From Opitutales bacterium (lineage in GTDB: Bacteria; Verrucomicrobiota; Verrucomicrobiia; Opitutales; Oceanipulchritudinaceae), in assembly GCA_016932335.1 (NCBI GenBank), contig JAFGCZ010000012.1, positions 1-64,000 of the forward strand: a stretch of 64,000 nt of DNA, written 5' to 3'. The notes under the pieces were generated by a model. It searched no databases. It was not told the DNA's origin and saw only the letters and a program-made list of their open reading frames with translations. Below are positions 46,194 to 59,636 of the stretch, piece by piece. The translations under genes were made by a program, and so were the position numbers. Each line of letters starts with the position of its first letter. Within the stretch, counting starts at the first letter, position 1.

Positions 46194-47801
46194 TTATTGC
46201 TTTTCGTAGGTAACCAGAATCACGTCGTTTTCCTTCATGGGAAAATTTCCACTGAGCAATCCGTCTTCACCCACCTGAATCAGTTGAACCGATTCCGGTG
46301 CGCCTGTACTTAAGGCTTTCAGTGTTTTCTCCTGGGCCTTACTCAACTGCTGCGGTTCACCCATGTCCAGATAAGCGGTATAGGCATCGTTGGAGCGGTA
46401 ACCGACACGGTAAACTTTCATGGTATAGGTTCCCGGAGCCACGTGAGCTACCTTCAGTTTCACTGGTTCTGCCGCTTTTGCGGGAAGATCTGTGTTGTAG
46501 TAATCCTGATTGTTTACGCCCTCACCGGGGTGGGTGATGGTAAAGTCCCAGAACAGTGCCTGAATGTTTCCTGAGCCGTCTGTGCACACCCAGGAGTCTT
46601 CATCGGCGTTGTTGAGCTCGGTGGAACCCAGTTCGTTAAAGAACTTGTAGGCAAAATATGCGGGCTTATGAATCCCCTGATAATTGCTCAATCCAAAACC
46701 GCCGTGGAAGGGTGTGTAGCGTGGGCCGGCTTCTTCAAAAATATCCGTAAAGGTCCAGTAGGACATCCCCTGTACCGCATCGCCCACACCTTTTACTTTG
46801 TTCAGGATAAATGCCGGGCTGTGGTAGCTGTCGTGGATAGGGTCCGATGGAGTGTAGGAGGCGCTCCATTCTGTGTAATAGAGAGGAATCCCTGCCATAT
46901 CACTCTCTTCTATTTGTTGCCTTACATCCTTGACTTCACGAATCATAGCATCGCGGTTGGGGCAAAATACGGTTCCCGCATTTCCCTTTTCATCGAGATA
47001 CCCGGCCATCACGGCATAGTTGTGGGTGGAGGCAAAATCCATGGGGACATTGTTGGTCTTACAGTATTCAATGAGTTCAGGCACCCAGGCATTGCCGGCA
47101 GTTGCCGGACCACCTACCGGATAACGCGGATTTACCGCCTTTACCGCACGTGCGGTTACCTCATACAATTTAAAGTACTCTTCCTTGGCATAAGCCTGGA
47201 ATTCCTCTTCGTCCATTCCCTTGGTGTCGCCGATCCAAAATCCGGAAAGGTTTGGTTCGTTCCACACTTCAAAGAACCATTGAGCCACTTCCTCTTCGCC
47301 ATAGCGTTCAGTCCAGTGTGTCACCAGTGCAGAGATAAAGTCAGCCCATTTTTCCGGGTCATTGGGAGGGGTTACATTGCCTTTCCACCAGAAAATGGTG
47401 GAGGGACCGCTGGAAAGCCCTGATGGCATAAAGCCAAGTTCCACGAAGGGGCGAACTCCCATGTCCAGCATAGCGTCAAACAACGCGTCGATGTATTGCC
47501 AATTATAGACGGGATTTCCGTGCTTGTCGAAAAAGTATACCCCCATGTCATCGCAAAGCAGACCGTGGAAGCGCAGGTATTTAAATCCGCATTCCTTCTG
47601 GGCGGTGGCCAACTGCTTTTGCCAGTCTGCTCGCAACCCTTCATTGGCGCGGCCGGCTCCTACGCAGAAATTCGGCATTTCTGTTAATGGTCCTTTTACC
47701 GCCTTCAAGTCGGTTGAGATTTCACGCGATTCTCCTATTTGAGCCGTTAGGGCAAGTCCGGAAAAGAGAAGAGTTTTAAGTAGTTTATTCATAAGGAACA
47801 T
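46194..47801 (-). CDS. Secreted GH39 glycosidase (beta-xylosidase type)
   Basis: 535 residues; start ATG 47801 or 47792 (MNKLLKTLLFSGLALTAQ), both giving the signal peptide. The TIM barrel has LRFHGLLCDDMGVYF, NWQYIDALFDAMLDMGVRPF, the acid/base Glu in FFEVWNEPNLSGFW and the nucleophile Glu in PLYYTEWSASYTPSD, followed by GMSYWTFTDIFEE. These are GH39 hallmarks, a family of beta-xylosidases and alpha-L-iduronidases. A C-terminal beta domain completes it. A CpG-centred palindrome at 47841 may be its operator. Confidence 0.9.
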   Translation of the reverse strand: MFLMNKLLKTLLFSGLALTAQIGESREISTDLKAVKGPLTEMPNFCVGAGRANEGLRADWQKQLATAQKECGFKYLRFHGLLCDDMGVYFFDKHGNPVYNWQYIDALFDAMLDMGVRPFVELGFMPSGLSSGPSTIFWWKGNVTPPNDPEKWADFISALVTHWTERYGEEEVAQWFFEVWNEPNLSGFWIGDTKGMDEEEFQAYAKEEYFKLYEVTARAVKAVNPRYPVGGPATAGNAWVPELIEYCKTNNVPMDFASTHNYAVMAGYLDEKGNAGTVFCPNRDAMIREVKDVRQQIEESDMAGIPLYYTEWSASYTPSDPIHDSYHSPAFILNKVKGVGDAVQGMSYWTFTDIFEEAGPRYTPFHGGFGLSNYQGIHKPAYFAYKFFNELGSTELNNADEDSWVCTDGSGNIQALFWDFTITHPGEGVNNQDYYNTDLPAKAAEPVKLKVAHVAPGTYTMKVYRVGYRSNDAYTAYLDMGEPQQLSKAQEKTLKALSTGAPESVQLIQVGEDGLLSGNFPMKENDVILVTYEKQ

Positions 47802-47840
47802 TGGTTAAGTGTTATAAAGTAAGGGGCTTCCTATTACCGT

Positions 47841-47848
47841 AAACGTTT
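47841..47848. promoter_or_regulatory. Candidate LacI-type operator upstream of the GH39 gene
   Basis: AAACGTTT, a CpG-centred 8-bp palindrome inside ACCGTAAACGTTTTTTT, about 40 bases before the GH39 start. Short, but it resembles the longer CpG palindromes before the GH2 and GH5 genes. Confidence 0.4.
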
Positions 47849-47868
47849 TTTTGAGGTAAGTATAACAA

Positions 47869-47895
47869 AAAAACTCCGCAGTCTGCGGAGTTTTT
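47869..47895 (-). terminator. Terminator of the GH2 gene
   Basis: The stem AAAAACTCCGCA/TGCGGAGTTTTT with a 3-base loop, about 20 bases beyond the GH2 stop on the minus strand, with T-rich tail. Confidence 0.88.
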
Positions 47896-47915
47896 AGTCG
47901 AGTCATAGCATTCGC

Positions 47916-50753
47916 TTACAAACCAAGTTTCTTGAGTTGTTCCAGAGTCATTGCAAATTCCGGTGCAAAAGCCTTCGAAGAGGTATAGCTCAACAGGCTT
48001 CTGTAAAACTGGCGCACTTCCGGGTATTCCATATGGTCAGGGAGGCGGGAGGTACAGACCAGCAACTTGCCGTTTCCAACTTTGAACTCACAAACCAGCC
48101 CCAATTTGTGCAGGCGAGAAATACAATCGATTACCTGGATCGTTGGGCGGTATTCCGCGGGGAGATCATCCAGAATCAGTGCCCGGCTATAGGTTACAAT
48201 GGGCCACCACTGGTAGTTGGTGTGGAATTCTGTAGGGAATTCCGCCACGGCCTCACTACGGGGATCCAGCAACAGCCCCATGGTTCCGGCAGAAATAGGC
48301 TTGTTTTGCTGTTTGGCAAAGCCGGTGAACATCTGCCAGTTCCAGAACTCGGAGATAAACTGGTTGGCAGTGGAATGGTCTTTGATGGCCGCTTCTGTAG
48401 GGAACAGCAGCACATTGCCGCCTTGTTCCAGCACTTTGAGCGTTGCCTCATCTAGCCTTTCTGCAACGGTTACGTTCTTCGGGATTTCCACCGTGTTCTC
48501 TGCCGGGTAAACCCACACCGGATAGCTGGTTTTTACGCCGCTGTCTTTGAGGAAGAGATCCAGATCTAGGCGCAACGGAGTGTTGATGCCGGACAATGAG
48601 AAGCGGATAGCTCCTTGAGCATGCTTTAGCCCTCCGTAAGCAGGAGCCTCAATAGATACGGCTCCTCTTTTCAGCACATGGCGGCCGTCTTTCAGTTCCC
48701 ATTCAATCACACCGTCGGTATAATCGTCCTTGCTGAAGTTGCTCAAGCTGACGTTGGCTTCATAGGTTTCAGCATCGGTCCAGCTGAACTTTTTCTGCTC
48801 CAGGAGGATTACCGTTTCGCTGCAGAACTGGCGGAACTCATCCGGGCGAATCAGGCCTTTGCTGTCCATGAACGCATCCAGAATGCCCACCAGCGCTGTT
48901 CCCTGGCCTGGATAGTCCTGCAGGTCCAGCAGATCAAATCCGGCATAGCGCTCGGTCCTCAACATCGCCTCTATATCAGCGCGGTAGCACAATACGGAAA
49001 GTGCTCCCGATGCTAGGAAAAAGTCTTCCGCCTGATCCAGCATCCCGGCTTTTTTCAGGCGTTCGCGGTAAAGCTCCAGGTTATAGGGCTTAAGCACTCC
49101 AGTATATTTGCTCAGCTCGCTGAAATTTGGGAATACCTGATATTGCCCAACCTCAAAACCAAGGAAGGGTACCGGAGAGCGTTCCAGCGCTTTATTGAAA
49201 TTGATTGTGGTGGAGGGGTAGCGAGAGTTCAGCAAACCTCCCTCACCGTTGGAGTCGATGTAAGACATGGACAGGCGGGCATCAGTGGAGCCGTTTTCCT
49301 GATAAGGGCCGGTGCGGAAAGAACGCCAGTAATCATCGCCTTCGGCATAGAAGGGATCCCAGAGACGATTGTTAGACCCCTGGGCATAAAGCGGGCGGGC
49401 ATCATGGGCGCGCAGCACATCAACCATTTCCTTCAGAACTGATCTTTCCTGAGACAGCTCATTGCCCAGTGAGAACATCACAAACGAGGCATGGTTGGCG
49501 TAAGCATCGGTGATTTCTTTACCCATACTTACCAGATAGGAAACTTGCGCTTTATTCTCTGCCCTGAATCCCCACCACATCGGCAGTTCTGGCTGCAGGT
49601 AAACTCCCATGCGGTCAGCGGCTTCAAAGGCGGCTTCCGGGGGAGTGAATGTGTGGAAACGGTAGTGATTGATTCCATAACTCTTGGCTATGCCGAATTC
49701 CCGCATCCACTCTTCCACCGTCATTGCCGGGTAACCGGTCAGGGGGAATACGCAGGCATCGTGCTTCCCACGCAGAAAGGTTCTGTTTCCGTTGATCGTA
49801 AAACCGTTCGGTGTGGGTTTAAACTCACGCAATCCCGCGGTCAGCGTTTGGGTGTCGATGACTTTGTCTCCATCGACCAGTTCCACTTCAATCGTATACA
49901 GATTCGGGGTCATATCGCTCCAGGTTTTGGCATCTTCACCAAGGTAAACACTTACCGAAGCATTTTTATCCGTAACATCGACTTCGTTGTAATCGCCCCA
50001 TCCGTCCGTGCTTCCTTCCGGTTTGGCACGTGCTCTCAGGGTAAGCCCTGCTTCCGATGCTGCATCGGAAAGGATGGTGGTGATGTCTATGGTTTTTTCG
50101 GCTACATGGGGTGTTGCTTTTACCGCCTCAATATGCTCCGGATCCATTGCCGTCAGATGGATTTTACCGATGATACCATTCCAGTTGGTCTGGGTATCTG
50201 GCGAGTAGGCGTGCGAACCTTCCACCGGCACCAGCGCAAGTGTATTGTCTACTTCGATGGTAATGGTGTTTTCTTTGCCCGGTCGGATGAACTGGCTGAC
50301 ATCCAGTGTCTGAGGTGCGTAGACTAGACTGCTTCCTCCCACAAATTGATCGTTGATCCAAACCTGAGTCACCTTAGTCCGCTCCAGGAGGAGTTCGACA
50401 TACTCTCCGGCAAAAGACTCTGGCACCAAAAATGTTCTCTGATACCAGGCTGGACCTTCGAATTGCAGCGGTTTGTCCAAATGCAGATCGGTCTTTTCAC
50501 CGATAGGGTTACCCATTTTGTTGGTGTCCAGCGATCCGGGAAGTATTACCGGACGAATCTCACCGGTGAGTAGGGCTTGCCCCTGTTCATTCTCTGAGGC
50601 ACTCAGTGAACATTCCCATTCTCCTTTTAGGCTCAGAACCTGTCGTTGAGCATTCAGTGTGGAGAGTGGTAACAGGCAAAACAGAGCCGCTGCGTAAATG
50701 GGTGTCAGGCGTACAGAGCGAACAGCGTTCGTCTTAAGAGTAGGTTTTTTCAT
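47916..50753 (-). CDS. Secreted GH2 family glycosidase
   Basis: 945 residues with a long signal peptide (LTPIYAAALFCLLPLSTLNA). GH2 layout: sugar-binding jelly roll (~35-205, with GPAWYQRTFLVPESFAG), Ig-like domain (~210-315), TIM barrel from ~320 (GFTINGNRTFLRGKHDACVF). The acid/base Glu is in FVMFSLGNELSQE and the nucleophile probably in PFLGFEVGQYQVFP. The final ~300 residues contain extra beta domains. The FEVGQYQV region differs from classical beta-galactosidases, so specificity is open (galactosidase, glucuronidase or other). A 14-bp palindrome lies 31 bases before its start. Confidence 0.87.
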   Translation of the reverse strand: MKKPTLKTNAVRSVRLTPIYAAALFCLLPLSTLNAQRQVLSLKGEWECSLSASENEQGQALLTGEIRPVILPGSLDTNKMGNPIGEKTDLHLDKPLQFEGPAWYQRTFLVPESFAGEYVELLLERTKVTQVWINDQFVGGSSLVYAPQTLDVSQFIRPGKENTITIEVDNTLALVPVEGSHAYSPDTQTNWNGIIGKIHLTAMDPEHIEAVKATPHVAEKTIDITTILSDAASEAGLTLRARAKPEGSTDGWGDYNEVDVTDKNASVSVYLGEDAKTWSDMTPNLYTIEVELVDGDKVIDTQTLTAGLREFKPTPNGFTINGNRTFLRGKHDACVFPLTGYPAMTVEEWMREFGIAKSYGINHYRFHTFTPPEAAFEAADRMGVYLQPELPMWWGFRAENKAQVSYLVSMGKEITDAYANHASFVMFSLGNELSQERSVLKEMVDVLRAHDARPLYAQGSNNRLWDPFYAEGDDYWRSFRTGPYQENGSTDARLSMSYIDSNGEGGLLNSRYPSTTINFNKALERSPVPFLGFEVGQYQVFPNFSELSKYTGVLKPYNLELYRERLKKAGMLDQAEDFFLASGALSVLCYRADIEAMLRTERYAGFDLLDLQDYPGQGTALVGILDAFMDSKGLIRPDEFRQFCSETVILLEQKKFSWTDAETYEANVSLSNFSKDDYTDGVIEWELKDGRHVLKRGAVSIEAPAYGGLKHAQGAIRFSLSGINTPLRLDLDLFLKDSGVKTSYPVWVYPAENTVEIPKNVTVAERLDEATLKVLEQGGNVLLFPTEAAIKDHSTANQFISEFWNWQMFTGFAKQQNKPISAGTMGLLLDPRSEAVAEFPTEFHTNYQWWPIVTYSRALILDDLPAEYRPTIQVIDCISRLHKLGLVCEFKVGNGKLLVCTSRLPDHMEYPEVRQFYRSLLSYTSSKAFAPEFAMTLEQLKKLGL

Positions 50754-50892: not shown

Positions 50893-51615
50893 CTACTGTT
50901 TCTTTGCGTCTATACTTAATAACAAACGCCCGAGAGATAAGTGATGAATTTCGGCCTTTGCCTGGGGGAGTGCTTGATTCGTCAGAAGGCTGAGTTCATC
51001 CTTTTTGAACCCTTTTCTGATAGATAGCAATCCGTCATAACGTGCGAAACTTCGCGGATAAAAGAGAGAAAGCAGCGCATAACCCCAATACGGAGCAGGC
51101 GCTCGGTGCAAATCGCTGAAAACCATCCTCCGGCGGACTGCGGGAAACCATTGCTTCAGTAATTCAATGATCTGTTCTTCTGCCAGATGATGCAGAAAGT
51201 GATTGCCGAAAACATAGTCTACGGGGGCCTTGGGGGGCTCTTTTAATAAATCGGTCTGCTTGATCTCAAGCCCGGGAACTTTTCCGTAGACTTCGCGGGC
51301 ATGGGCCACGATGTTTGCATCGTAATCGCAGGCTGTTATGTGCAGCTTCAATCCGTGCTTCTCTGCTGCTTTCAGTAGCCATACATCTATGTCGCATCCA
51401 CCGGCTCCCATATCCACCAGATGTCTGGATTCTTGAGGCCTTTCCTGCATATCATCGAGCACCCATTTGCTTAGGATGAATTTGTAGCGGGAAACCAGCC
51501 GGTTAATGGACTTAAACTGGTCGACTGTTCGCAGCAGCTTGCGGGGATCACAGTCGGGATCATCCATCAGTTCATGTTCGCTGGATCGTATGGAAAAGTC
51601 TGGAATCAAGGACAT
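50893..51615 (-). CDS. Class I SAM-dependent methyltransferase (last gene of the PKS operon)
   Basis: 240 residues from ATG 51615 (MSLIPDFSIRSSEHELMDDP); a TTG at 51639 would overlap the previous gene. SAM-binding motif I is VDMGAGGCDIDVWLL, with CDYDANIVAHAREV (motif II region) and VDYVFGNHFLHHL. N-terminal DDPDCDPRKLLRTVDQFKSI resembles methyltransferases found next to type III PKS genes. It lies 10 bases after the UbiE-like gene, so it probably modifies the same phenolic lipid product. The acceptor is unknown. Confidence 0.82.
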   Translation of the reverse strand: MSLIPDFSIRSSEHELMDDPDCDPRKLLRTVDQFKSINRLVSRYKFILSKWVLDDMQERPQESRHLVDMGAGGCDIDVWLLKAAEKHGLKLHITACDYDANIVAHAREVYGKVPGLEIKQTDLLKEPPKAPVDYVFGNHFLHHLAEEQIIELLKQWFPAVRRRMVFSDLHRAPAPYWGYALLSLFYPRSFARYDGLLSIRKGFKKDELSLLTNQALPQAKAEIHHLSLGRLLLSIDAKKQ

Positions 51616-51625
51616 GGTGGAACGT

Positions 51626-52357
51626 TTATTTTTCAACAATCAGGATTTCCAGAATACCACCGAAACACTTTTTACTCTGGATGAGTTTCAGTTGTCTTTC
51701 TGTCAGTAATCTGCGGATAGATGGTCTGTCCGGAAAGCGTTTTAAGCTGTCGGCTATGTAGCCGTAAACATCGGCATTTCTATGCAGCAAGATTCCCCAG
51801 AAGCCTCCCCAGAATTTAAGTAATCCGTGAGTGATGCCTTGGCCAATTTTGTTTTTTGGCTTGGAGAAATCCAAAAATGCGGCAATGCCTCCGGGTTTTA
51901 AGATTCGGTAGATTTCTTCCAGAGTGTGTCCCAGTTCCGGGGTATTCCTCAGCGCATAACTCCCGGTGACGATATCAATGCTTTCGTCGCTGTAGGGCAG
52001 TTCGTTCATGTTTCCCTGCACAAACAAAATTCGTTGATCTTCCGTTCGAGTTCGGGCGATTTCCAGCATTCCCGGAGTTAAGTCTAATCCCTCAATTTTT
52101 GCGTCGGGAAAGCGTGCACCCAATAAACGCGTCAAATCGCCGGTCCCACAAGCCAAATCTAAACAGCTGGCATTTCGTTTTTCAGGCAATATGCGTATCA
52201 ACGCTCGCTTCCAGGCAGAATCCCGTCCCAAAGACAACGCTTTGGTAATAAAATCATATTTGGGTGCAACTTCATCAAACAGCTTCCGGTTCAGTTCCAG
52301 CTTATCCGATGGGGCGTCTAAATGTTCTGTTGGTTTTAAATTAAATCGTGGTGTCAT
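51626..52357 (-). CDS. UbiE/MenG-like C-methyltransferase
   Basis: 243 residues. UbiE/COQ5 family motifs: FDEVAPKYDFITKALSLGRD, CLDLACGTGDLTRLLG, GLDLTPGMLEIA, VTGSYALRNTPELGHTLEEI and ILKPGGIAAFLDFSKP. The family C-methylates benzoquinol or naphthoquinol rings. Here it overlaps the FAD-monooxygenase fusion gene by 17 bases in a type III PKS operon, so a resorcinol-derived quinone ring is a likelier substrate than ubiquinone or menaquinone. It could still serve the respiratory quinone if no other copy exists. Confidence 0.87.
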   Translation of the reverse strand: MTPRFNLKPTEHLDAPSDKLELNRKLFDEVAPKYDFITKALSLGRDSAWKRALIRILPEKRNASCLDLACGTGDLTRLLGARFPDAKIEGLDLTPGMLEIARTRTEDQRILFVQGNMNELPYSDESIDIVTGSYALRNTPELGHTLEEIYRILKPGGIAAFLDFSKPKNKIGQGITHGLLKFWGGFWGILLHRNADVYGYIADSLKRFPDRPSIRRLLTERQLKLIQSKKCFGGILEILIVEK

Positions 52358-54320
52358 TCAGTTTCTCCTCTAAGAGCGCTTTATTTCCGGGAATGGTTAA
52401 CATGGCAAAATAGGGCGCCAGCTTCCTGCGTATGTTTGCCCTCAATAGGACTTTTTGAATTAACTTCCTTCTCACCGATGAGGCCACAAAGCCGCGTCGG
52501 GTCCCCAGCCACATGCCGTAACAGGCACGCGAGGCGGCCACCGAAAAGGCTTTCCGGCGAAGGTTATTATACGGCTGTGCCTGAAGCCTTTTTTCTACAT
52601 CCCTGTTTAACATTGGAATTAATAGCTTGGAAAGTGCCACGGCATCGGCAAATCCGGTGTTCATTCCCTGGCCTCCAATGGGGCTCATGACATGCGCGGC
52701 ATCTCCGCAGAGATACACATTCCCGCGATTGTAGACCGATGCGATCCCCCGTTGTGGGCGAAACATGCTTTCAAAGTAGATTTTGCAATGTCCCAGCTCC
52801 ATGCCGGTGCGTTTTCTTACGTGCTCTATAATTGATTGGGCAATTTCCTTTGTGGCATCCTCATGCTTTGGTCTCTGTATAATCCAACGTCGTTGATGAT
52901 GAGGCAGGGGGAACGATTCTACTGAACCGTGAGGCCCAAAATACAAGTGGGCTTCGCTTCCGAAGTCGGTCAGGTCCTCAAAGTCGGCCATCAGAAATTC
53001 GGTACTGTAGTTTTTCCGGGAGAACCCGATGTGTGCCTGTTTGCGGACTCGGCTCCGATTTCCGTCGCAACCGATTAGTTTCCTGGCGGAATAGTGGGTA
53101 GTGGAGCCTGTCTTCTGGTCTCTAACGCAAACGGTTACTCCATTGGAAAAGGATTCATGCTTCAGATAATCTACTTCCGTAATAAGGCGCACATTTCCAT
53201 AACTTAGGGCTTTCTCCTGCAGTATGGCCATGGTTTCCGATTGATGGAGCGAGAGAATAAAGGGGTGTTCCGTCGGCAGTTGATCAAAGTCCAATGCTCC
53301 TACAAAGCTACCGTTTTCAAACACTTTTGCTGTGTTGATCCGAACTCCGCGTTCCACAAAGAATTGGTCCACACCAAGTTCTTTGAGCACATGCAACGAT
53401 GGCGGTGTGATGCCTATGGCCATAGAGCCTTTGGGGAGTTCCTTGCGCCGTTCAACCAAAATTACATGGATGTTCATCCTTCCCAACAAGCTGGCCAGTA
53501 GTAAACCGATGGGGCCGGCCCCGACGATCAACACATCGGCATCAAACCGGTCGATATGCCCCCTGTCATTCCCATTTCGTTTCGGAATCCAAAATGGAAC
53601 AGCCTTTTGATAGTTGCGGAAAGATTCACCGAACAGTTTCACAAAACGTTTTTCTTTCAACACTGATCCCACTATACAGTAGAGGGTCCAGCCAATTGCC
53701 AAAAAGAGTTGATCGGGCGTCCAGATAGCGCTGAACCAGAGTATCAGGGCAAAAGAAATGTATATCGGCTGTCTTACATGCCGGTAAAGCCCCTCTGTGG
53801 CAAATCGCTTATATTTGGGCTTTTGCTTGCGGAAGACCGCAAACCACCCCAACAACCCCAGTTGAAAACTCAGTTGGGCATCATACATGGATTTTCCCAA
53901 CAATAGCCAGGCACTTCCAGCCATGCCTGCTATAGCCCATGTTTGCCAACCCTGTGCCTGCCACCAAATTATACCCGAAGGAGACCAGAGCAAAAAAACG
54001 CTCAACAATTGAAGGGAGGCAATGGCGGCAAAGGTGGTGGTGCTGAGTTCTTTGCCGATTCCCAAAGGAACGAGTTTTGCCATCAAACTCCGTCCTTTTC
54101 CGGTCAATAACCAGGAATGAATCAGAGGAAAGGACAGCAGAAGAAGGGTGTTGCCGGGCACAGCTGCCCAACCGCTCAAGGGCCCGAAGCCCAATTGCAT
54201 TCCCCAAAACAGGTTGGAGGCCATTGCGGCAATTGCACTGAGAAACAAAAAGTGACAGGTCAGCCCCCAGAAAAGGGCAAATCCGCGTTGGCTCAAAGTG
54301 TATTCAGGTTCCGGGTTCAT
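52341..54320 (-). CDS. Fusion: ICMT-like membrane methyltransferase + FAD-dependent aromatic monooxygenase
   Basis: 659 residues. Residues ~1-250 are a membrane domain with about six helices, ending in GLYRHVRQPIYISFALILW and EKRFVKLFGESFRNYQKAVP, the signature of isoprenylcysteine carboxyl methyltransferase-like enzymes. From ~263 a complete FAD monooxygenase follows: DADVLIVGAGPIGLLLASLL, middle DG motif LIGCDGNRSRVRK, and VYLCGDAAHVMSPIGGQGMN. In the known srsABC pathway, SrsB (ICMT-type O-methyltransferase) and SrsC (flavin hydroxylase) are separate proteins acting on alkylresorcinols made by SrsA. This protein looks like SrsB-SrsC in one chain. It overlaps both neighbours (4 and 17 bases). 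Confidence 0.87.
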   Translation of the reverse strand: MNPEPEYTLSQRGFALFWGLTCHFLFLSAIAAMASNLFWGMQLGFGPLSGWAAVPGNTLLLLSFPLIHSWLLTGKGRSLMAKLVPLGIGKELSTTTFAAIASLQLLSVFLLWSPSGIIWWQAQGWQTWAIAGMAGSAWLLLGKSMYDAQLSFQLGLLGWFAVFRKQKPKYKRFATEGLYRHVRQPIYISFALILWFSAIWTPDQLFLAIGWTLYCIVGSVLKEKRFVKLFGESFRNYQKAVPFWIPKRNGNDRGHIDRFDADVLIVGAGPIGLLLASLLGRMNIHVILVERRKELPKGSMAIGITPPSLHVLKELGVDQFFVERGVRINTAKVFENGSFVGALDFDQLPTEHPFILSLHQSETMAILQEKALSYGNVRLITEVDYLKHESFSNGVTVCVRDQKTGSTTHYSARKLIGCDGNRSRVRKQAHIGFSRKNYSTEFLMADFEDLTDFGSEAHLYFGPHGSVESFPLPHHQRRWIIQRPKHEDATKEIAQSIIEHVRKRTGMELGHCKIYFESMFRPQRGIASVYNRGNVYLCGDAAHVMSPIGGQGMNTGFADAVALSKLLIPMLNRDVEKRLQAQPYNNLRRKAFSVAASRACYGMWLGTRRGFVASSVRRKLIQKVLLRANIRRKLAPYFAMLTIPGNKALLEEKLNDTTI

Positions 54321-54826
54321 GGGTGGCCTTCCTTATTCAACTGCTCAATCAAAGTCTCGGCTGTTTGGCCGAATGCATCCCGGAGAATATATTCCTGATT
54401 ATTTCGAATGTAATTGCTGCTCAGGAAAAGGCTCTCCCTGAGCTCTCCGTTTAGCTTAAAATCAATGCGGTCTCCGGATGAATACCGGCAGAAATCAACT
54501 ACGAGGAGTGCTTGTTTGTTCATTCTTCGCTCATCCTTGTAGTCAATGAAAGCTGCCTCAAGAGTCTCGACATATGTTTGCATGTCCTTGTTGTCTCCCC
54601 AGTTGCTTTCCTCGCTTCCACGGATCTTTTTCAAAACTTTATCGGGAAAACGGGTGTCGATGATCGAGCGGACAATAAAACCGTCTTCTGTTTCCACCAG
54701 TTGAATTTCACTCTGCGGGAAAATTCTGTTCGGCATCTGGGCTGACGCCAGAACGGTTTCTGTTGCCTGTAAATGGATCAACGCCAGCAGAAGAAAATAA
54801 CAATAAAGCCATGTTCTTTTGACCAT
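54317..54826 (-). CDS. Unknown secreted protein of the PKS operon
   Basis: 169 residues with a signal peptide (MVKRTWLYCYFLLLALIHLQ, cleavage near ATETVLA). The family was not recognised. The mature part is rich in charged residues, with the strand-like segments EDGFIVRSIIDTRF and ALLVVDFCRYSS. It may be a lipid-binding or chalcone-isomerase-like domain, but the key motifs of those families are not visible. It starts 5 bases after the PKS stop, and its stop overlaps the fusion gene as ATGA, so it belongs to the pathway or to export of its product. Confidence 0.7.
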   Translation of the reverse strand: MVKRTWLYCYFLLLALIHLQATETVLASAQMPNRIFPQSEIQLVETEDGFIVRSIIDTRFPDKVLKKIRGSEESNWGDNKDMQTYVETLEAAFIDYKDERRMNKQALLVVDFCRYSSGDRIDFKLNGELRESLFLSSNYIRNNQEYILRDAFGQTAETLIEQLNKEGHP

Positions 54827-54831
54827 CGAAT

Positions 54832-55935
54832 TTATGCTGGTTGATATTCAAATAAACCGCTGTCAATCGTCAGCCCTGGTCCGAAGGCCATGGCACAAAC
54901 AGGGTGCGGATCATCTTTTCGCTCCAGAATTCGCTTGAGCACAAAAAGAACCGTGGCACTGCTCATGTTTCCATAATCACCCAGCACGCTGCGTGAGTCT
55001 CCAATCTGCTCTTCACGCAGACTCAGCTCAGATTCTATACGGTCCAGAATCGCTCGACCGCCCGGATGAATGGCCCAATTCTTGACTTGCCCAATTGCTA
55101 CAGAGGAATCCTTGAGCACATGATCGACGATTTGGTGAATGCTGCCTCCAATAATTTTGGGAATGTAAGTGGACAAGCGAATGTCAAAACCGTGATCTCC
55201 AATTTCCCATGCCATATCACCGACGCCTTCCGGTGCCAGCGCAGAGTGGAACGAGGCTATTTTCAACGCTGCTTGCCCGCTTTCCGGTTTGCGGGCACTG
55301 ACGATTACGGCAGCCGCTCCGTCGGCAAACAGTGCGTTGGCCAGCATGCTGTCTGTTTCCTCGCGAAACTGCACGTGTAGCGTGCACAATTCCAGACAGA
55401 TGACCAAAACAACCGCATCCGGGTTGGCCTGGCAAAACTGATGTGCCATCCGCAGTCCGGGGAATGCCGCATAGCATCCCATAAATCCTATGTTGTAGCG
55501 TTCCGTTGAATCAGGCAGCTCCAGCCCTTGGACAACATCATAATCCGGCCCTGGATTATAGAAGCCGGTGCACGACACCGTCACTACATGAGTTACGTCT
55601 TCTTTTTTGAACCCGGGCGTATTGTCTATGACTTTGCGGGCTGCCTCAATATACATGGGCCTTGCGTGTTCCCTGAATACCCTGTTACGTTTACCGGTGG
55701 ATGGTTCAATGATTTTGCCGTTCTCGTCCTCGCGGAAAAGGAGGGGCGTCTCCTCGGGTATAAAGTCGGGCAATACGCTGTAGCGGGTGTGAATGCTGGA
55801 TTGGTCGTAAATACCTGTCAGCAGCCTCTGATTGCGCTTTCCCGGGAGCCAGTGAATCATGCGATCCCGGGAGTAGTCTTGTTTGTAGGCAAAAGGTGGA
55901 ACCAGAGTTTCTATATTGTGGATGTATATGCTCAT
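54832..55935 (-). CDS. Type III polyketide synthase (chalcone/alkylresorcinol synthase family)
   Basis: 367 residues, the usual length. The Cys-His-Asn triad is intact: Cys ~153 in IGFMGCYAAFPGLRMA, His ~289 in NWAIHPGGRAILD and Asn ~322 in LGDYGNMSSATVLF. Further motifs are VVTVSCTGFYNPGPDYDVVQ and the C-terminal AMAFGPGLTIDSGLF (GFGPG-type loop). It extends an acyl starter with malonyl units to alkylresorcinols or alkylpyrones. Its start overlaps the YceI-like gene stop (ATGA). The methyltransferase and monooxygenase genes downstream suggest a modified phenolic lipid or quinone product. Confidence 0.93.
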   Translation of the reverse strand: MSIYIHNIETLVPPFAYKQDYSRDRMIHWLPGKRNQRLLTGIYDQSSIHTRYSVLPDFIPEETPLLFREDENGKIIEPSTGKRNRVFREHARPMYIEAARKVIDNTPGFKKEDVTHVVTVSCTGFYNPGPDYDVVQGLELPDSTERYNIGFMGCYAAFPGLRMAHQFCQANPDAVVLVICLELCTLHVQFREETDSMLANALFADGAAAVIVSARKPESGQAALKIASFHSALAPEGVGDMAWEIGDHGFDIRLSTYIPKIIGGSIHQIVDHVLKDSSVAIGQVKNWAIHPGGRAILDRIESELSLREEQIGDSRSVLGDYGNMSSATVLFVLKRILERKDDPHPVCAMAFGPGLTIDSGLFEYQPA

Positions 55936-56522
55936 AGGTTTTTTGGAAATTCGCTTTTAAGTAATTTGCTGTTGATGTTGCATTCGACATGGACTGTATC
56001 TGCTACGTTGATCAACCCCATTACCGAGGGTGCCTCCAGTCCAAAGGTTTCCAGTGATATGTTAAATTGGAGGGTGCAGGAGATCTCCTCGCTGTTTTGC
56101 CTCCACTCCGAAATAGTGGCATATACAGGTTCTTCTACACTGCGAATCGTTACCAATAGGGTGGTTTCTGTTTCTGCTTCCTTGAGAATCGGTGTTGGTG
56201 GTAGTATCACGCGAACGAGAGGGAAGTTTTCCTGATCAAACATGCGGAGCATTTTCCGATCGCGTTTTTTATTGTCGGTATCCATCTCCGCTACCTGAAC
56301 GGTTGCCGTTGCCGAAACGATGCTAGTCTCGCCGTCTTCTTTCCAATGAATGGTAAAGGGTTCTGCTGAGACCTGACCTTCAAAATCGTGTAGTGTTGAT
56401 GTCCCCGAGAAATGAACAGAGGCAAAGCCGGTCAATTCTTCTGCACTGCAATATGCTGAGAGAAGCAGGCTGATTAGAATAAGAATTCCATGAACTTGAA
56501 TTTTCATAAACGAATGATTCAT
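55932..56522 (-). CDS. YceI-like secreted lipid-binding protein
   Basis: 196 residues (or 191 from ATG 56507) with a signal peptide (GILILISLLLSAYCSAEE). The YceI signature is visible: HFSGTSTLHDFEGQVS near the N-terminus and KRDRKMLRMFDQENFPLVRV in the middle, then SLETFGLEAPSVMGL near the end. YceI proteins are lipocalin-like barrels that bind polyisoprenoid or amphiphilic lipids in the periplasm. As first gene of the PKS operon it may carry the phenolic lipid product. It is divergent from the two-component system genes. Confidence 0.87.
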   Translation of the reverse strand: MNHSFMKIQVHGILILISLLLSAYCSAEELTGFASVHFSGTSTLHDFEGQVSAEPFTIHWKEDGETSIVSATATVQVAEMDTDNKKRDRKMLRMFDQENFPLVRVILPPTPILKEAETETTLLVTIRSVEEPVYATISEWRQNSEEISCTLQFNISLETFGLEAPSVMGLINVADTVHVECNINSKLLKSEFPKNL

Positions 56523-56565: not shown

Positions 56566-56587
56566 AACCTTAAAATATCGTAAGGTT
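56566..56587. promoter_or_regulatory. Inverted repeat between the YceI-PKS operon and the two-component genes
   Basis: AACCTTA, 8 bases, TAAGGTT: a perfect 7-bp inverted repeat, overlapping a direct repeat TTAAAATA (56570 and 56586, 16 bp apart). It sits in the 108-bp divergent region, a natural site for the adjacent OmpR-type regulator. Function inferred from position. Confidence 0.5.
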
Positions 56588-56630: not shown

Positions 56631-57302
56631 ATGATTTTAGTGGTTGAAGACGACAGAACTCTTTCGGAATCCCTCTGCAAAGGGCTTTCAGAAGCCGGAT
56701 ACAGTTGTCGTACGGTTCATTCGAGAAAGGAGGCCGCCGACGCTATGGAGTTGTTGCCGGATTTGATCATTCTGGACTTGGGATTACCCGATGGTGATGG
56801 CATTGCTGTGCTCAAGATGGTTCGCAACAGGTCTGCGGAGCTTCCTGTTATCATCACCACCGCGCGCTCTGAGCTTTCCAGCAGGTTAAAAGGCCTTTCT
56901 TCCGGTGCGGATGATTACATGGTCAAGCCATACTCTTTTGACGAACTTTTGGCCCGTATCCGCATTCAACTGCGTCATTTTGAGCGGACACAAACCCGGT
57001 GGGAGATCGGTGATCTGGTCATCGATCTTCCCTCCAGAACTGCCTCCAGATCGGGGCAGGTGCTTGATTTAACCCCGCGTGAATTTGACCTGTTGGCTTA
57101 TATGGCATCGTTGCATGGAGAGGTTGCCACACGGCAGATGCTTCAGGAATCTATCTGGAAGGTTCGTTCCAATATGACATCAATGGACAATGTCATCGAT
57201 GTGCATGCCTCTCGGTTGCGACAGAAACTGGGTGAGTTTGGAGGAGTGCCTCTCTTGCACACCGTCCGTGGGGTGGGGCTGGTTCTCAAGGAGGGTAAAT
57301 GA
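56631..57302 (+). CDS. OmpR-family response regulator
   Basis: 223 residues. Receiver domain: VEDDRTLSESLCKGLSEAGY, phospho-acceptor Asp (~49) in IILDLGLPDGDGIAVL, Thr in IITTARSE and Lys in DYMVKPYSFDELLARI. Winged-helix output domain from ~125: LTPREFDLLAYMASLHGEVA, SMDNVIDVHASRLRQKLGE, HTVRGVGLVLKEG. The gene ends in an ATGA overlap with the histidine kinase gene. It probably controls the divergent YceI-PKS operon. Confidence 0.95.
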   Translation: MILVVEDDRTLSESLCKGLSEAGYSCRTVHSRKEAADAMELLPDLIILDLGLPDGDGIAVLKMVRNRSAELPVIITTARSELSSRLKGLSSGADDYMVKPYSFDELLARIRIQLRHFERTQTRWEIGDLVIDLPSRTASRSGQVLDLTPREFDLLAYMASLHGEVATRQMLQESIWKVRSNMTSMDNVIDVHASRLRQKLGEFGGVPLLHTVRGVGLVLKEGK

Positions 57303-58345
57303 AATCTACCATTCGTCTCAAATTCTTTTATTTGCTTTCCGTTTACACTTTTCTGGTGTTCTGTCTGATCGGGGTATTGCTCTTTGCCTTCAATATTCAT
57401 GAGCAGCTGGAGCACCCTGCTCAAAGCGCTGAGGAAGCGGAGGAATTCTTCATCATTGTTGGCTTCATGGCCTTGCTCTTTCCCGTTACCCTGATGCTTG
57501 CCTGGTATGTTGCATCCCGCCTTTTACGTCCCTGGAGAAGTTTACTTCATCAGGCGGAGCAAATAGGTAACGGAGCATTGGAGGAACGCATCATTACACA
57601 TAATCCCGCGGATGAAGTAGGACGATTGGCCACCACGCTGAATCAGGCGTTTGATCGTTACCGGATGCTTGTGGAGCGTATGGAACGCTATAATTATGAT
57701 GCATCACATCAATTAAGAAACCCTTTGGCTGCCATACGTACTGCCGGAGAGGTTTGCCTGAAGCATCCGCGAACGGAAGAGGAATACCGAGAGGTTATCA
57801 GTGACGTTTTAGAGGAAACCAACCGTTTGAGTGCCACGGTGAATCAGCTTCTATTGTTGGCCCGATGTACCACCGATGCGGTTCTCGAACAGATGCGAAG
57901 GGTTGATCTCAAGACCGTGCTTTCCGATGTGGTAGCAGAAGCGGAAACCATTGGCGAGTTACGTTCCCTCTCGGTGTCCTTACAGTGCCCTTATCCGTCG
58001 GTCGAAATCACCGCAGTTCCTGAGTTGTTGCGCGAGTCTTTTGCCAATTTGCTGGATAATGCGCTGAAATACTCTCCCGATAACGCATCAATTGAATGTT
58101 CTATTCGCCTTCTTGAAGATGGCTTTGCCCGGATTGAAATCTGTGATAGCGGCCCGGGGCTTACTCTGGAGCAGAAAGCCACTGTGTTCCGGCCATTTGT
58201 GCGCAGCCGTCAGGATGAGCGTGGAACCGGTATTGGTCTGGCCATCGTTGCCGATGTATGCCAAATACATCATGCCCGCTTTGGCGTTGAAAATGTCCCT
58301 GAAGGTGGATCCTGCTTCTGGATTGAGTTTCCCATGCATCGCTAA
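57299..58345 (+). CDS. Sensor histidine kinase
   Basis: 348 residues. Two membrane helices (~7-29 and ~52-74) enclose a very short periplasmic loop of ~20 residues, followed by a HAMP domain (SRLLRPWRSLLHQAEQIGNG). The H-box is YDASHQLRNPLAAIRTAGEV (His ~137), the N-box ESFANLLDNALKYSPDNASI, then EICDSGPGLT and GTGIGLAIVADVCQ. The small loop suggests sensing within the membrane or by a partner, for example membrane lipid state. It is coupled to the response regulator upstream. Confidence 0.94.
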   Translation: MKSTIRLKFFYLLSVYTFLVFCLIGVLLFAFNIHEQLEHPAQSAEEAEEFFIIVGFMALLFPVTLMLAWYVASRLLRPWRSLLHQAEQIGNGALEERIITHNPADEVGRLATTLNQAFDRYRMLVERMERYNYDASHQLRNPLAAIRTAGEVCLKHPRTEEEYREVISDVLEETNRLSATVNQLLLLARCTTDAVLEQMRRVDLKTVLSDVVAEAETIGELRSLSVSLQCPYPSVEITAVPELLRESFANLLDNALKYSPDNASIECSIRLLEDGFARIEICDSGPGLTLEQKATVFRPFVRSRQDERGTGIGLAIVADVCQIHHARFGVENVPEGGSCFWIEFPMHR

Positions 58346-58496: not shown

Positions 58497-59636
58497 ATGA
58501 AAATTAAAACCACACTATACCTTTGTACCCTTGGTTTGCTTCTGGCTCTCACTCCCGGCTGCAATATCGAAAATAAAACTGAAACCCTGCCGGTTGCCGG
58601 AACAGAATTTGTCCTCGGATCTGGGGTTAATGCCAGTCACTGGTTGGCTCAGCATTTTGAGGGGATTCCACCAAAAGATATCTTTTTTACTCAGGAAGAC
58701 GTTCAATTGCTGAAAGATGCCGGGTTTCAGCACCTGCGCATTCCAGTAGAAGAAGTCGAAATGTGGAACGAAGACGGTTCTCCCAACGAAGAGTCTTTCC
58801 GTTATCTCGATCAGGCCCTACACTGGGCTCAAGATGCCGGCTTAAACGCAATTCTCGATTTACACATCATCAAGGCTCACCACTTCAATTCCGAGCATGG
58901 CGATGGAAAGAATGTGCTCTTTACCAGTGAAGAAGCTCAGCAGCATCTCGTAGGGCTTTGGCAGCAGCTCTCGGATCGCTGTCATGAATGGCCCAATGAT
59001 TTCTTGGCCTATGAGATCCTCAATGAGGCGGTGGCCGAAAATCATGAAGACTGGAATAAACTGGTCGCCAAATGCGTTGCCGCTATCCGCGAAAAAGAAC
59101 CAGAGCGTTTTTTGGTTATTGGTTCCAACCGCTGGCAACAGACTCAGTTTTTCCCGTTCCTGAAAATTCCTGAAGGAGATCGTCGCATAATTCTCAGCTT
59201 CCATTTCTATAACCCGTTCCCATTCACCCATTATCAGGCCGGCTGGGTTGGCGCTTATTCCGATTACCGCGGTCCCATCAACTACCCCGGAAATATCGTA
59301 CCCGAGGACTATCTGGAAAGCCTTGCTGAGGGAGAAATCAGAGATATGCTCACCGAGTCGTTCTATAACGATAAAGAAACACTTCGCGCCATGATGAAAC
59401 CGGCCATTGACTATGCCGCAGAACACAACCTGGCCCTTTACTGCGGAGAGTGGGGCACAATGCCCACTATGCCCCGCGAAGACCGCTTGCAGTGGTACCG
59501 CGATATGAGTCAGGTTTTCCGGGAAGAGGGTATCGAGAATGCCATTTGGTCCTACAAAGTAGAATTTGGAATCCGCAGCAACGACAACTCGTTCACGGAT
59601 TACGAACTCATTCACTCCATTCTGACTGGGGAATAA
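58497..59636 (+). CDS. GH5 family glycosidase lipoprotein (endoglucanase/mannanase type)
   Basis: 379 residues with a lipoprotein signal (LGLLLALTPGC, lipobox TPGC). The GH5 TIM barrel shows GSGVNASHWLAQHF, FQHLRIPVEEVEMW, NAILDLHIIKAHHFN, the acid/base Glu in LAYEILNEAVAENH and the nucleophile Glu in LALYCGEWGTMP. It is anchored to a membrane facing the periplasm or surface. GH5 covers cellulases, mannanases and others, and the subfamily cannot be fixed by eye. It is a single-gene unit with its own palindromic operator candidate and terminator. Confidence 0.9.
   Translation: MKIKTTLYLCTLGLLLALTPGCNIENKTETLPVAGTEFVLGSGVNASHWLAQHFEGIPPKDIFFTQEDVQLLKDAGFQHLRIPVEEVEMWNEDGSPNEESFRYLDQALHWAQDAGLNAILDLHIIKAHHFNSEHGDGKNVLFTSEEAQQHLVGLWQQLSDRCHEWPNDFLAYEILNEAVAENHEDWNKLVAKCVAAIREKEPERFLVIGSNRWQQTQFFPFLKIPEGDRRIILSFHFYNPFPFTHYQAGWVGAYSDYRGPINYPGNIVPEDYLESLAEGEIRDMLTESFYNDKETLRAMMKPAIDYAAEHNLALYCGEWGTMPTMPREDRLQWYRDMSQVFREEGIENAIWSYKVEFGIRSNDNSFTDYELIHSILTGE

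What the first reader, a model, noticed from the sequence alone, without database searches (positions are those of the whole stretch)
50893..56522. Six-gene type III PKS operon resembling srsABC, with SrsB- and SrsC-like enzymes fused
YceI-like protein, type III PKS, unknown secreted protein, ICMT-like methyltransferase/FAD monooxygenase fusion, UbiE-like and a second methyltransferase are joined by 4-17 base overlaps or gaps of at most 10 bases. In the known srs pathway a type III PKS makes alkylresorcinols, an ICMT-type enzyme O-methylates and a flavin enzyme hydroxylates the ring. Here the last two are one polypeptide, and C-methylation plus a periplasmic lipid-binding protein are added. 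The predicted product is a methoxylated, methylated alkyl-benzoquinone or phenolic lipid, perhaps a membrane or redox lipid.
Basis: partly seen in the sequence, partly recalled or inferred. Interest (0 to 1): 0.82.

Follow-up and report, generated by a model that had tools for sequence, protein, structure and literature searches.

The report
Operon for a ubiquinone-like polyketide lipid
A tightly packed, recurrent set of bacterial genes probably builds a ubiquinone-like fatty quinone from a polyketide instead of the usual prenylated precursor, using a membrane enzyme fused to an oxygen-inserting enzyme; the fusion and extra genes are new variations on a known type of pathway, and the product itself has not been observed.

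Summary
Six genes at 50893-56522 (- strand) are co-linear, and the membrane-methyltransferase/FAD-hydroxylase fusion is real: intact in 18 non-redundant Verrucomicrobiota clusters (Pontiellaceae, Prosthecobacter and others), monophyletic (0.93), with unfused sister versions. The unit is larger than reported: a divergent two-component system (56631-58345) and a 10-bp direct repeat in the shared promoter recur beside it. Some relatives add an MMPL/HAE3 lipid pump. The PKS-FAD-methyltransferase core occurs in many phyla. Elsewhere the same FAD enzyme is fused to the UbiE-like or the other methyltransferase, so these enzymes probably modify one substrate. Corrections: the membrane domain is nearest MddA (below cut-off), not demonstrably SrsB, and reads RQPIY instead of RHPxY; similar clusters are published (srs, pkq, hid, the planctomycete trio, the five-gene 'S. 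ferox' operon). Best reading: O-methylation plus para-hydroxylation of an alkylresorcinol gives 2-methoxy-6-alkyl-benzoquinol, the alkyl analogue of UbiE's own substrate, which the operon's dedicated UbiE paralogue then C-methylates. Product, redox role and export are inferred. New variant of a known kind.

The parts
55932..56522 (-). YceI-like protein with signal peptide (by eye); periplasmic isoprenoid/lipid-binding family
   Evidence: Pfam PF04264 1.7e-10; with every membrane-domain cluster, 20 of 20
54832..55935 (-). Type III polyketide synthase; triad C154, H290, N323; W243 at the resorcinol-marker position
54317..54826 (-). Secreted 169-aa protein of a new small family; weak chalcone-isomerase-like fold match
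   Evidence: no Pfam; homologues in 9 non-redundant clusters; model pLDDT 89; Foldseek 9wbe_C prob 0.92, TM 0.47, E 0.065; profile test against Chalcone_3 negative
52341..54320 (-). Fusion protein, 659 aa: MddA/ICMT-like membrane domain plus FAD-dependent aromatic hydroxylase
53571..54320 (-). Membrane domain (residues 1-250) with RQPIY and KEKR motifs
   Evidence: NF045656 E 2.5e-24, below cut-off; 4a2n by profile 2.9e-4; motifs
52383..53543 (-). FAD hydroxylase domain (residues 260-646), class A flavoprotein
   Evidence: FAD_binding_3 8e-54; Foldseek best PnpA 6ain, E 5e-26
51626..52357 (-). UbiE-family methyltransferase, dedicated paralogue
   Evidence: TIGR01934 173.9 bits, over cut-off 158; host has a second, higher-scoring copy at G000:C2:330057
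50893..51639 (-). PRK06202-like class I methyltransferase (ATG start possibly at 51615)
   Evidence: NF004851 6.8e-45, below equivalog cut-off; same family as the Deinococcus and planctomycete PKS-cluster enzymes
56631..57302 (+). OmpR-family response regulator, divergent from the operon
   Evidence: Pfam; same place in 11 non-redundant related loci
57299..58345 (+). Sensor histidine kinase partner
   Evidence: Pfam; conserved next to the response regulator
56569..56583 (+). Putative regulator site: direct repeat CTTAA-N5-CGTAA, 10-bp period, in the divergent promoter
   Evidence: 11 of 12 divergent promoters against 0.06 in shuffles; pattern chosen on these sequences

Best explanation
A two-component-regulated operon that makes and handles a methylated, hydroxylated alkylresorcinol, most likely a ubiquinone-like alkylbenzoquinone. 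Proposed steps: (1) the type III PKS turns a fatty acyl-CoA and three malonyl-CoA into a 5-alkylresorcinol. (2) In the fused membrane enzyme the MddA/ICMT-like domain O-methylates one hydroxyl at the membrane surface. (3) The attached FAD domain hydroxylates para to the free hydroxyl, giving 2-methoxy-6-alkyl-1,4-benzoquinol, the ring pattern of UbiE's known substrate with an alkyl in place of a polyprenyl tail. (4) The operon's own UbiE paralogue C-methylates this quinol. (5) The PRK06202-like enzyme adds another methyl, on O or C. (6) YceI and the secreted protein (plus an MMPL/HAE3 pump in some relatives) bind or move the lipid in the periplasm. Fusing steps 2 and 3 would pass a bilayer-anchored intermediate between two sites. 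Shown here: domain identities, intact PKS triad and FAD motifs, conservation of fusion, gene set and regulator, alternative fusions. Inferred: all substrates, the order of steps, the quinone and its role.
For: PKS triad intact, and Trp where PKS11 also has Trp while the pyrone synthase PKS18 and THN synthase have Leu and Tyr (marker from PMC5916927 and PMC9927152). FAD domain closest to PnpA, a para-hydroxylating phenol monooxygenase, and to PHBH-type enzymes. The FAD family is fused to each of three methyltransferases in different lineages: membrane domain, UbiE, PRK06202-like. UbiE in the operon is an extra copy; all ten genomes tested keep a canonical MenG. O2-using oxidases in all ten genomes. 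Homologous planctomycete PKS operons make alkylresorcinols and, with their methyltransferase and oxidoreductase, C-methylated ones (PMC10896814). Related operons make polyketide quinones used as electron carriers (PMC9927152). Membrane domain always with YceI; lipid-type pump in some clusters.
Against: No product known. The membrane domain is only remotely related to tested O-methyltransferases and has Gln for the motif His. Many related clusters lack it or UbiE, so the pathway is modular. PKS11 is also annotated as an alpha-pyrone synthase in the PDB, so the Trp is not decisive. Pump and secreted protein would also fit a non-redox surface lipid.
Confidence: 0.6

Rival explanations
1. The operon makes an exported phenolic lipid (methoxylated alkylphenol) for the outer membrane or cell surface, acting as a structural or protective lipid and not as a redox carrier. 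The FAD step adds a hydroxyl, further methylation blocks quinone formation as in hierridin, and YceI, the secreted protein and in relatives the MMPL pump deliver it outwards.
For: YceI with every membrane-domain cluster; HAE3/MMPL pump with similarity to hopanoid HpnN in Pontiellaceae and Desulfuromonadales clusters; secreted protein in several; hierridin is an O-methylated, hydroxylated alkylresorcinol (PMC10896814).
Against: UbiE-type C-methylation fits a quinol best; the window itself has no pump gene in the operon; YceI could equally carry a quinone.
Confidence: 0.25
2. The membrane domain is no longer a methyltransferase but anchors the FAD hydroxylase in the membrane and presents the lipid to it; methylations are done only by the UbiE-like and PRK06202-like enzymes.
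For: The motif His is Gln in all fused members and in the unfused sister L065; many related clusters work without this domain.
Against: The R, P, Y and E of the motifs are invariant in the 11 sequences aligned, MddA included; the domain profile still reaches a true ICMT; the Gln itself is strictly kept in the fused group.
Confidence: 0.25
3. The PKS makes alkyl-alpha-pyrones and not resorcinols, and the other enzymes decorate a pyrone.
For: Type III PKS products are hard to predict; related PKS18 makes pyrones and PKS11, which shares the Trp, is labelled a pyrone enzyme in the PDB; ICMT-type enzymes methylate pyrones in Bacillus (BpsB, from my own knowledge).
Against: Trp at the resorcinol position; class A hydroxylases and UbiE act on phenols and quinols; related planctomycete PKSs gave resorcinols (PMC10896814).
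Confidence: 0.12
4. The fusion is a sequencing or assembly artefact.
For: The window comes from a draft assembly of 15 contigs, 80% complete.
Against: 18 independent intact fused frames in isolates and MAGs.
Confidence: 0.01

Closest known systems
'Saltatorellus ferox' five-gene type III PKS operon (PMC10896814)
   Same: Lipid/isoprenoid-binding protein, lipoprotein, two methyltransferases and PKS in one operon; the PKS makes alkylresorcinols
   Different: No FAD gene or fusion described, another phylum; role of its methyltransferases not found. Sequence not compared here
srsABC of Streptomyces griseus and pkqABC of Mycobacterium smegmatis (polyketide quinones; PMC9927152)
   Same: Type III PKS, O-methyltransferase and flavin hydroxylase acting on an alkylresorcinol
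   Different: Three separate genes; no YceI, UbiE or second methyltransferase described; the window's membrane domain is not shown to be SrsB-like
Planctomycete methyltransferase-oxidoreductase-PKS trio and cyanobacterial hidABC (PMC10896814)
   Same: PRK06202-family methyltransferase and alkylresorcinol-forming PKS (PKS 39% identical to the Paludisphaera one)
   Different: In the Paludisphaera trio the oxidoreductase is of the geranylgeranyl-reductase type and not the class A hydroxylase type of the window
Deinococcus radiodurans type III PKS-methyltransferase-FAD trio (L173)
   Same: All three proteins are homologous to the window's: PKS 49%, methyltransferase 35%, FAD 34% identical
   Different: No membrane domain, UbiE, YceI or regulator next to it; product unknown to me
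Ubiquinone biosynthesis (UbiE, UbiG, UbiH-type steps)
   Same: C-methylation by a UbiE-family enzyme, flavin hydroxylation and O-methylation on a lipid-tailed phenol
   Different: Ring from a polyketide and not from 4-hydroxybenzoate; alkyl tail; a different O-methyltransferase superfamily in the fusion
MddA methanethiol S-methyltransferase
   Same: Nearest curated family of the membrane domain, similar over its full length
   Different: 85.9 bits against a cut-off of 270; RQPIY/KEKR instead of RHPLY/EERD; fused to a hydroxylase

Membership tests
srsABC/pkq polyketide-quinone operons | Type III PKS with intact Cys-His-Asn triad and resorcinol-marker Trp | tested here: met
   C154, H290, N323, W243
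srsABC/pkq polyketide-quinone operons | ICMT-type O-methyltransferase orthologous to SrsB | tested here: inconclusive
   Same superfamily (4a2n by profile) but nearest MddA; only motif-level similarity to a PKS-linked ICMT from Sulfitobacter; SrsB itself not available
srsABC/pkq polyketide-quinone operons | Flavin aromatic hydroxylase | tested here: met
   FAD_binding_3 8e-54 and PnpA/PHBH fold; SrsC itself not compared
srsABC/pkq polyketide-quinone operons | Alkylbenzoquinone product | not testable with these tools
   Needs lipid mass spectrometry
hidABC/planctomycete trio | Geranylgeranyl-reductase-type oxidoreductase | tested here: not met
   Paludisphaera enzyme TIGR02032 2e-33, no BLAST match to the window FAD domain
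hidABC/planctomycete trio | PRK06202-family methyltransferase | tested here: met
   33% identity to the Paludisphaera enzyme; both hit NF004851, both below its equivalog cut-off
MddA | Score over the NF045656 cut-off | tested here: not met
   85.9 against 270 bits; a true MddA scores 338
UbiE/MenG family | Score over the TIGR01934 subfamily cut-off | tested here: met
   173.9 against 158.35 bits; below the narrower equivalog PRK00216.1-5 (184.3 against 216)
UbiE/MenG family | The genome's menaquinone methyltransferase | tested here: not met
   A separate copy scores 241 bits at G000:C2:330057
Chalcone isomerase-like proteins (secreted protein) | Profile similarity to Chalcone_3 | tested here: not met
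   hhalign probability 0.3%; only a weak fold match
'S. ferox' five-gene operon | Orthology of the lipid-binding protein, lipoprotein and methyltransferases | not tested
   Sequences not obtained; description only (PMC10896814)

The most novel reading that the evidence does not exclude
A second route to ubiquinone-type chemistry: a polyketide-derived alkylresorcinol is converted by a fused membrane O-methyltransferase/hydroxylase into the alkyl analogue of UbiE's substrate and finished by a captured UbiE paralogue, giving a ubiquinone-like redox lipid in menaquinone-type Verrucomicrobiota and relatives, made on demand by a dedicated two-component system and moved through the periplasm by YceI, a secreted protein and, in some, an MMPL pump.
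Probability: 0.3. Interest if true: 0.85.

Novelty: new variant of a known kind. Interest (0 to 1): 0.62.

Why it matters
Polyketide quinones are reported electron carriers in Actinobacteria, but in most other phyla type III PKS clusters have no assigned product or role. This cluster gives a concrete, mass-predictable product hypothesis, a dedicated regulator to follow, and natural gene fusions that suggest which enzymes share a substrate. It would also be a case in which a UbiE paralogue has been recruited to a polyketide ring. Named isolates (Brevifollis gellanilyticus, Pontiellaceae bacterium B1224) carry fused versions, so the idea can be tested.

Tried and rejected
Frameshift artefact: rejected (18 intact fused frames). 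Operon UbiE as the host's only MenG: rejected. Membrane domain as a true MddA: rejected by score. Secreted protein as a Chalcone_3 homologue by profile: negative; no Pfam or PDB sequence family. A search on plasmids for an srsABC-like actinobacterial cluster as comparator failed: the Streptomyces and Embleya PKS loci fetched had other neighbours or no matching genes, so SrsB and SrsC were never compared directly. Satou 2013 (ArsB/ArsC) is not held; the Trp rule was taken from two other papers. No paper held combines YceI with type III polyketide synthase. Anaerobic host as an objection to an O2-using hydroxylase: weakened, since the host has cytochrome bd and all ten genomes tested have a bd and/or heme-copper oxidase.
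Full report
OBSERVATION. Family searches give YceI, type III PKS, no family for the 169-aa secreted protein, FAD_binding_3 for the C-terminal part of the fusion, UbiE, and a PRK06202-like class I methyltransferase. The window is part of a 2.1 Mb, 80% complete assembly.

THE MEMBRANE DOMAIN. The N-terminal 250 residues of the window protein hit no ICMT Pfam model. The best curated model is MddA (85.9 bits against a cut-off of 270), PEMT is just below its cut-off, and DUF1295 is over its cut-off for the isolated domain. A profile of the cluster versions with one MddA reaches the Methanosarcina ICMT structure 4a2n at 2.9e-4. So 'ICMT-like' holds at superfamily level; 'SrsB-like' is not shown. A PKS-linked ICMT from Sulfitobacter shares only the motif region. 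All fused members read RQPIY, and the unfused sister L065 reads RQPMY; unfused L068, L072 and L135 and a true MddA read RHPxY. The His-to-Gln change therefore probably predates the fusion and leaves the catalytic status open.

THE FUSION. One stop-free frame joins both domains in 18 non-redundant clusters, in Pontiellaceae, Prosthecobacter, Brevifollis, other Verrucomicrobiota and the window; four clusters have separate genes (L065, L068, L072, L135). On the domain tree the fused members form one group (support 0.93), consistent with a single fusion. AlphaFold2 gives a confident model of both domains with a low-confidence linker. The FAD domain is closest to p-nitrophenol 4-monooxygenase PnpA and to PHBH-type hydroxylases. 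Two other fusions of the same FAD family exist: FAD-UbiE (L105, titled Zixiibacteriota; L112; L163, titled Lentisphaeria) and FAD-PRK06202-type methyltransferase (L073, L128). Three different methyltransferases joined to one hydroxylase in different lineages suggest that they work on one substrate.

DISTRIBUTION. The PKS has a clade of 43-67% identical relatives in the phylum, but within the window's own family and order nothing is above about a third identity. On the PKS tree the window sits in the Pontiellaceae-type group (support 0.99), next to L090/L200. That suggests transfer between classes or repeated loss; composition shows no sharp boundary. The PKS-FAD core, usually with the PRK06202-like enzyme, reaches Deinococcus, Balneolaceae, Spirochaetes, Desulfuromonadales, Planctomycetes and Psychrobacter. 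Among 91 non-redundant PKS+FAD loci the membrane domain occurs in 20, always with YceI (20 of 20 against 17 of 71 without it). These loci are related to one another, so the formal P value of 2e-10 overstates independence.

ENVELOPE GENES. Pontiellaceae clusters carry an HAE3/MMPL-family RND pump, with some similarity to hopanoid HpnN, between PKS and fusion. Delta-proteobacterial loci L104 and L129 have YceI-PKS-FAD-MMPL-secreted protein-UbiE. The secreted protein is thus a recurrent member, in 9 non-redundant clusters plus the window. Its model is confident (pLDDT 89); the most probable fold match is a plant chalcone isomerase-like protein (prob 0.92, TM 0.47, but E 0.065), and a profile test against bacterial Chalcone_3 proteins is negative. 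I treat that as a lead only.

REGULATION. A response regulator and a histidine kinase (56631-58345) diverge from the operon, and homologues sit in the same place in 11 non-redundant related loci. Eleven of twelve divergent promoters hold CTKAA-N5-SKTMA, a direct repeat with 10-bp period of the kind OmpR-family regulators bind; dinucleotide shuffles gave 0.06 on average and at most 2. The pattern was chosen on these sequences, and some of them are close relatives. In the window it lies at 56569-56583; there are four other matches in 64 kb, near chance level.

MECHANISM. PKS triad and the resorcinol-associated Trp are present. O-methylation of a 5-alkylresorcinol and hydroxylation para to the remaining hydroxyl gives 2-methoxy-6-alkyl-1,4-benzoquinol. 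This is UbiE's substrate pattern with an alkyl tail (substrate name as in the NCBIfam title; ring numbering is my own derivation). The operon carries a UbiE paralogue, while all ten genomes tested keep a separate canonical MenG and a UbiA-family prenyltransferase, and all have a bd and/or heme-copper oxidase. The simplest reading is a ubiquinone-like alkylquinone made next to menaquinone. What the last enzyme methylates is open: the planctomycete methyltransferase gave C-methylation and HidA O-methylation (PMC10896814).

KNOWN CONTEXT. Alkylresorcinols from planctomycete PKS operons, including a five-gene operon with a lipid/isoprenoid-binding protein, a lipoprotein and two methyltransferases, are published (PMC10896814). 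Polyketide quinones are alternate electron carriers in mycobacteria and probably Streptomyces (PMC9927152). Hence this is a new variant and not a new kind of system. New here, as far as the papers I could search show, are the membrane-methyltransferase/FAD fusion and its alternative fusions, the UbiE-substrate logic, and the conserved regulator and pump.

LIMITS. No product is known; srs and 'S. ferox' proteins were not compared directly; the catalytic status of the membrane domain is uncertain; the regulator-site motif was tested on the sequences it was chosen from.

Noticed in passing
L105:338-2338, L112:7080-9080, L163:1340-3661: The same FAD hydroxylase family fused to a UbiE-like methyltransferase in one frame (Zixiibacteriota, an unnamed bacterium, Lentisphaeria).
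   Followed up: partly
L073:7200-8954, L128:3403-5160: The same FAD family fused to the PRK06202-like methyltransferase.
   Followed up: partly
L089:7995-9995; L104:11205-13499: HAE3/MMPL-type RND pump gene inside the PKS clusters of Pontiellaceae and delta-proteobacteria.
   Followed up: partly
window 53760-53774 (fusion residues 183-187): RQPIY replaces the RHPxY motif of the ICMT/MddA superfamily in every fused member.
   Followed up: partly
L183:2715-3893: The planctomycete trio (Paludisphaera) uses a geranylgeranyl-reductase-type oxidoreductase, unlike the class A hydroxylase of the window and Deinococcus, so similar-looking trios differ in their redox enzyme.
   Followed up: partly
G000 whole genome: Cytochrome bd present (C1:257705) and no COX1-type oxidase found, in an 80% complete assembly.
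   Followed up: no
window 46194-50753 and 58497-59636: Glycoside hydrolase genes (GH2 and GH5 by Pfam, and a probable further glycosidase at 46194-47801) flank the operon and its regulator, as in a polysaccharide degrader.
   Followed up: no
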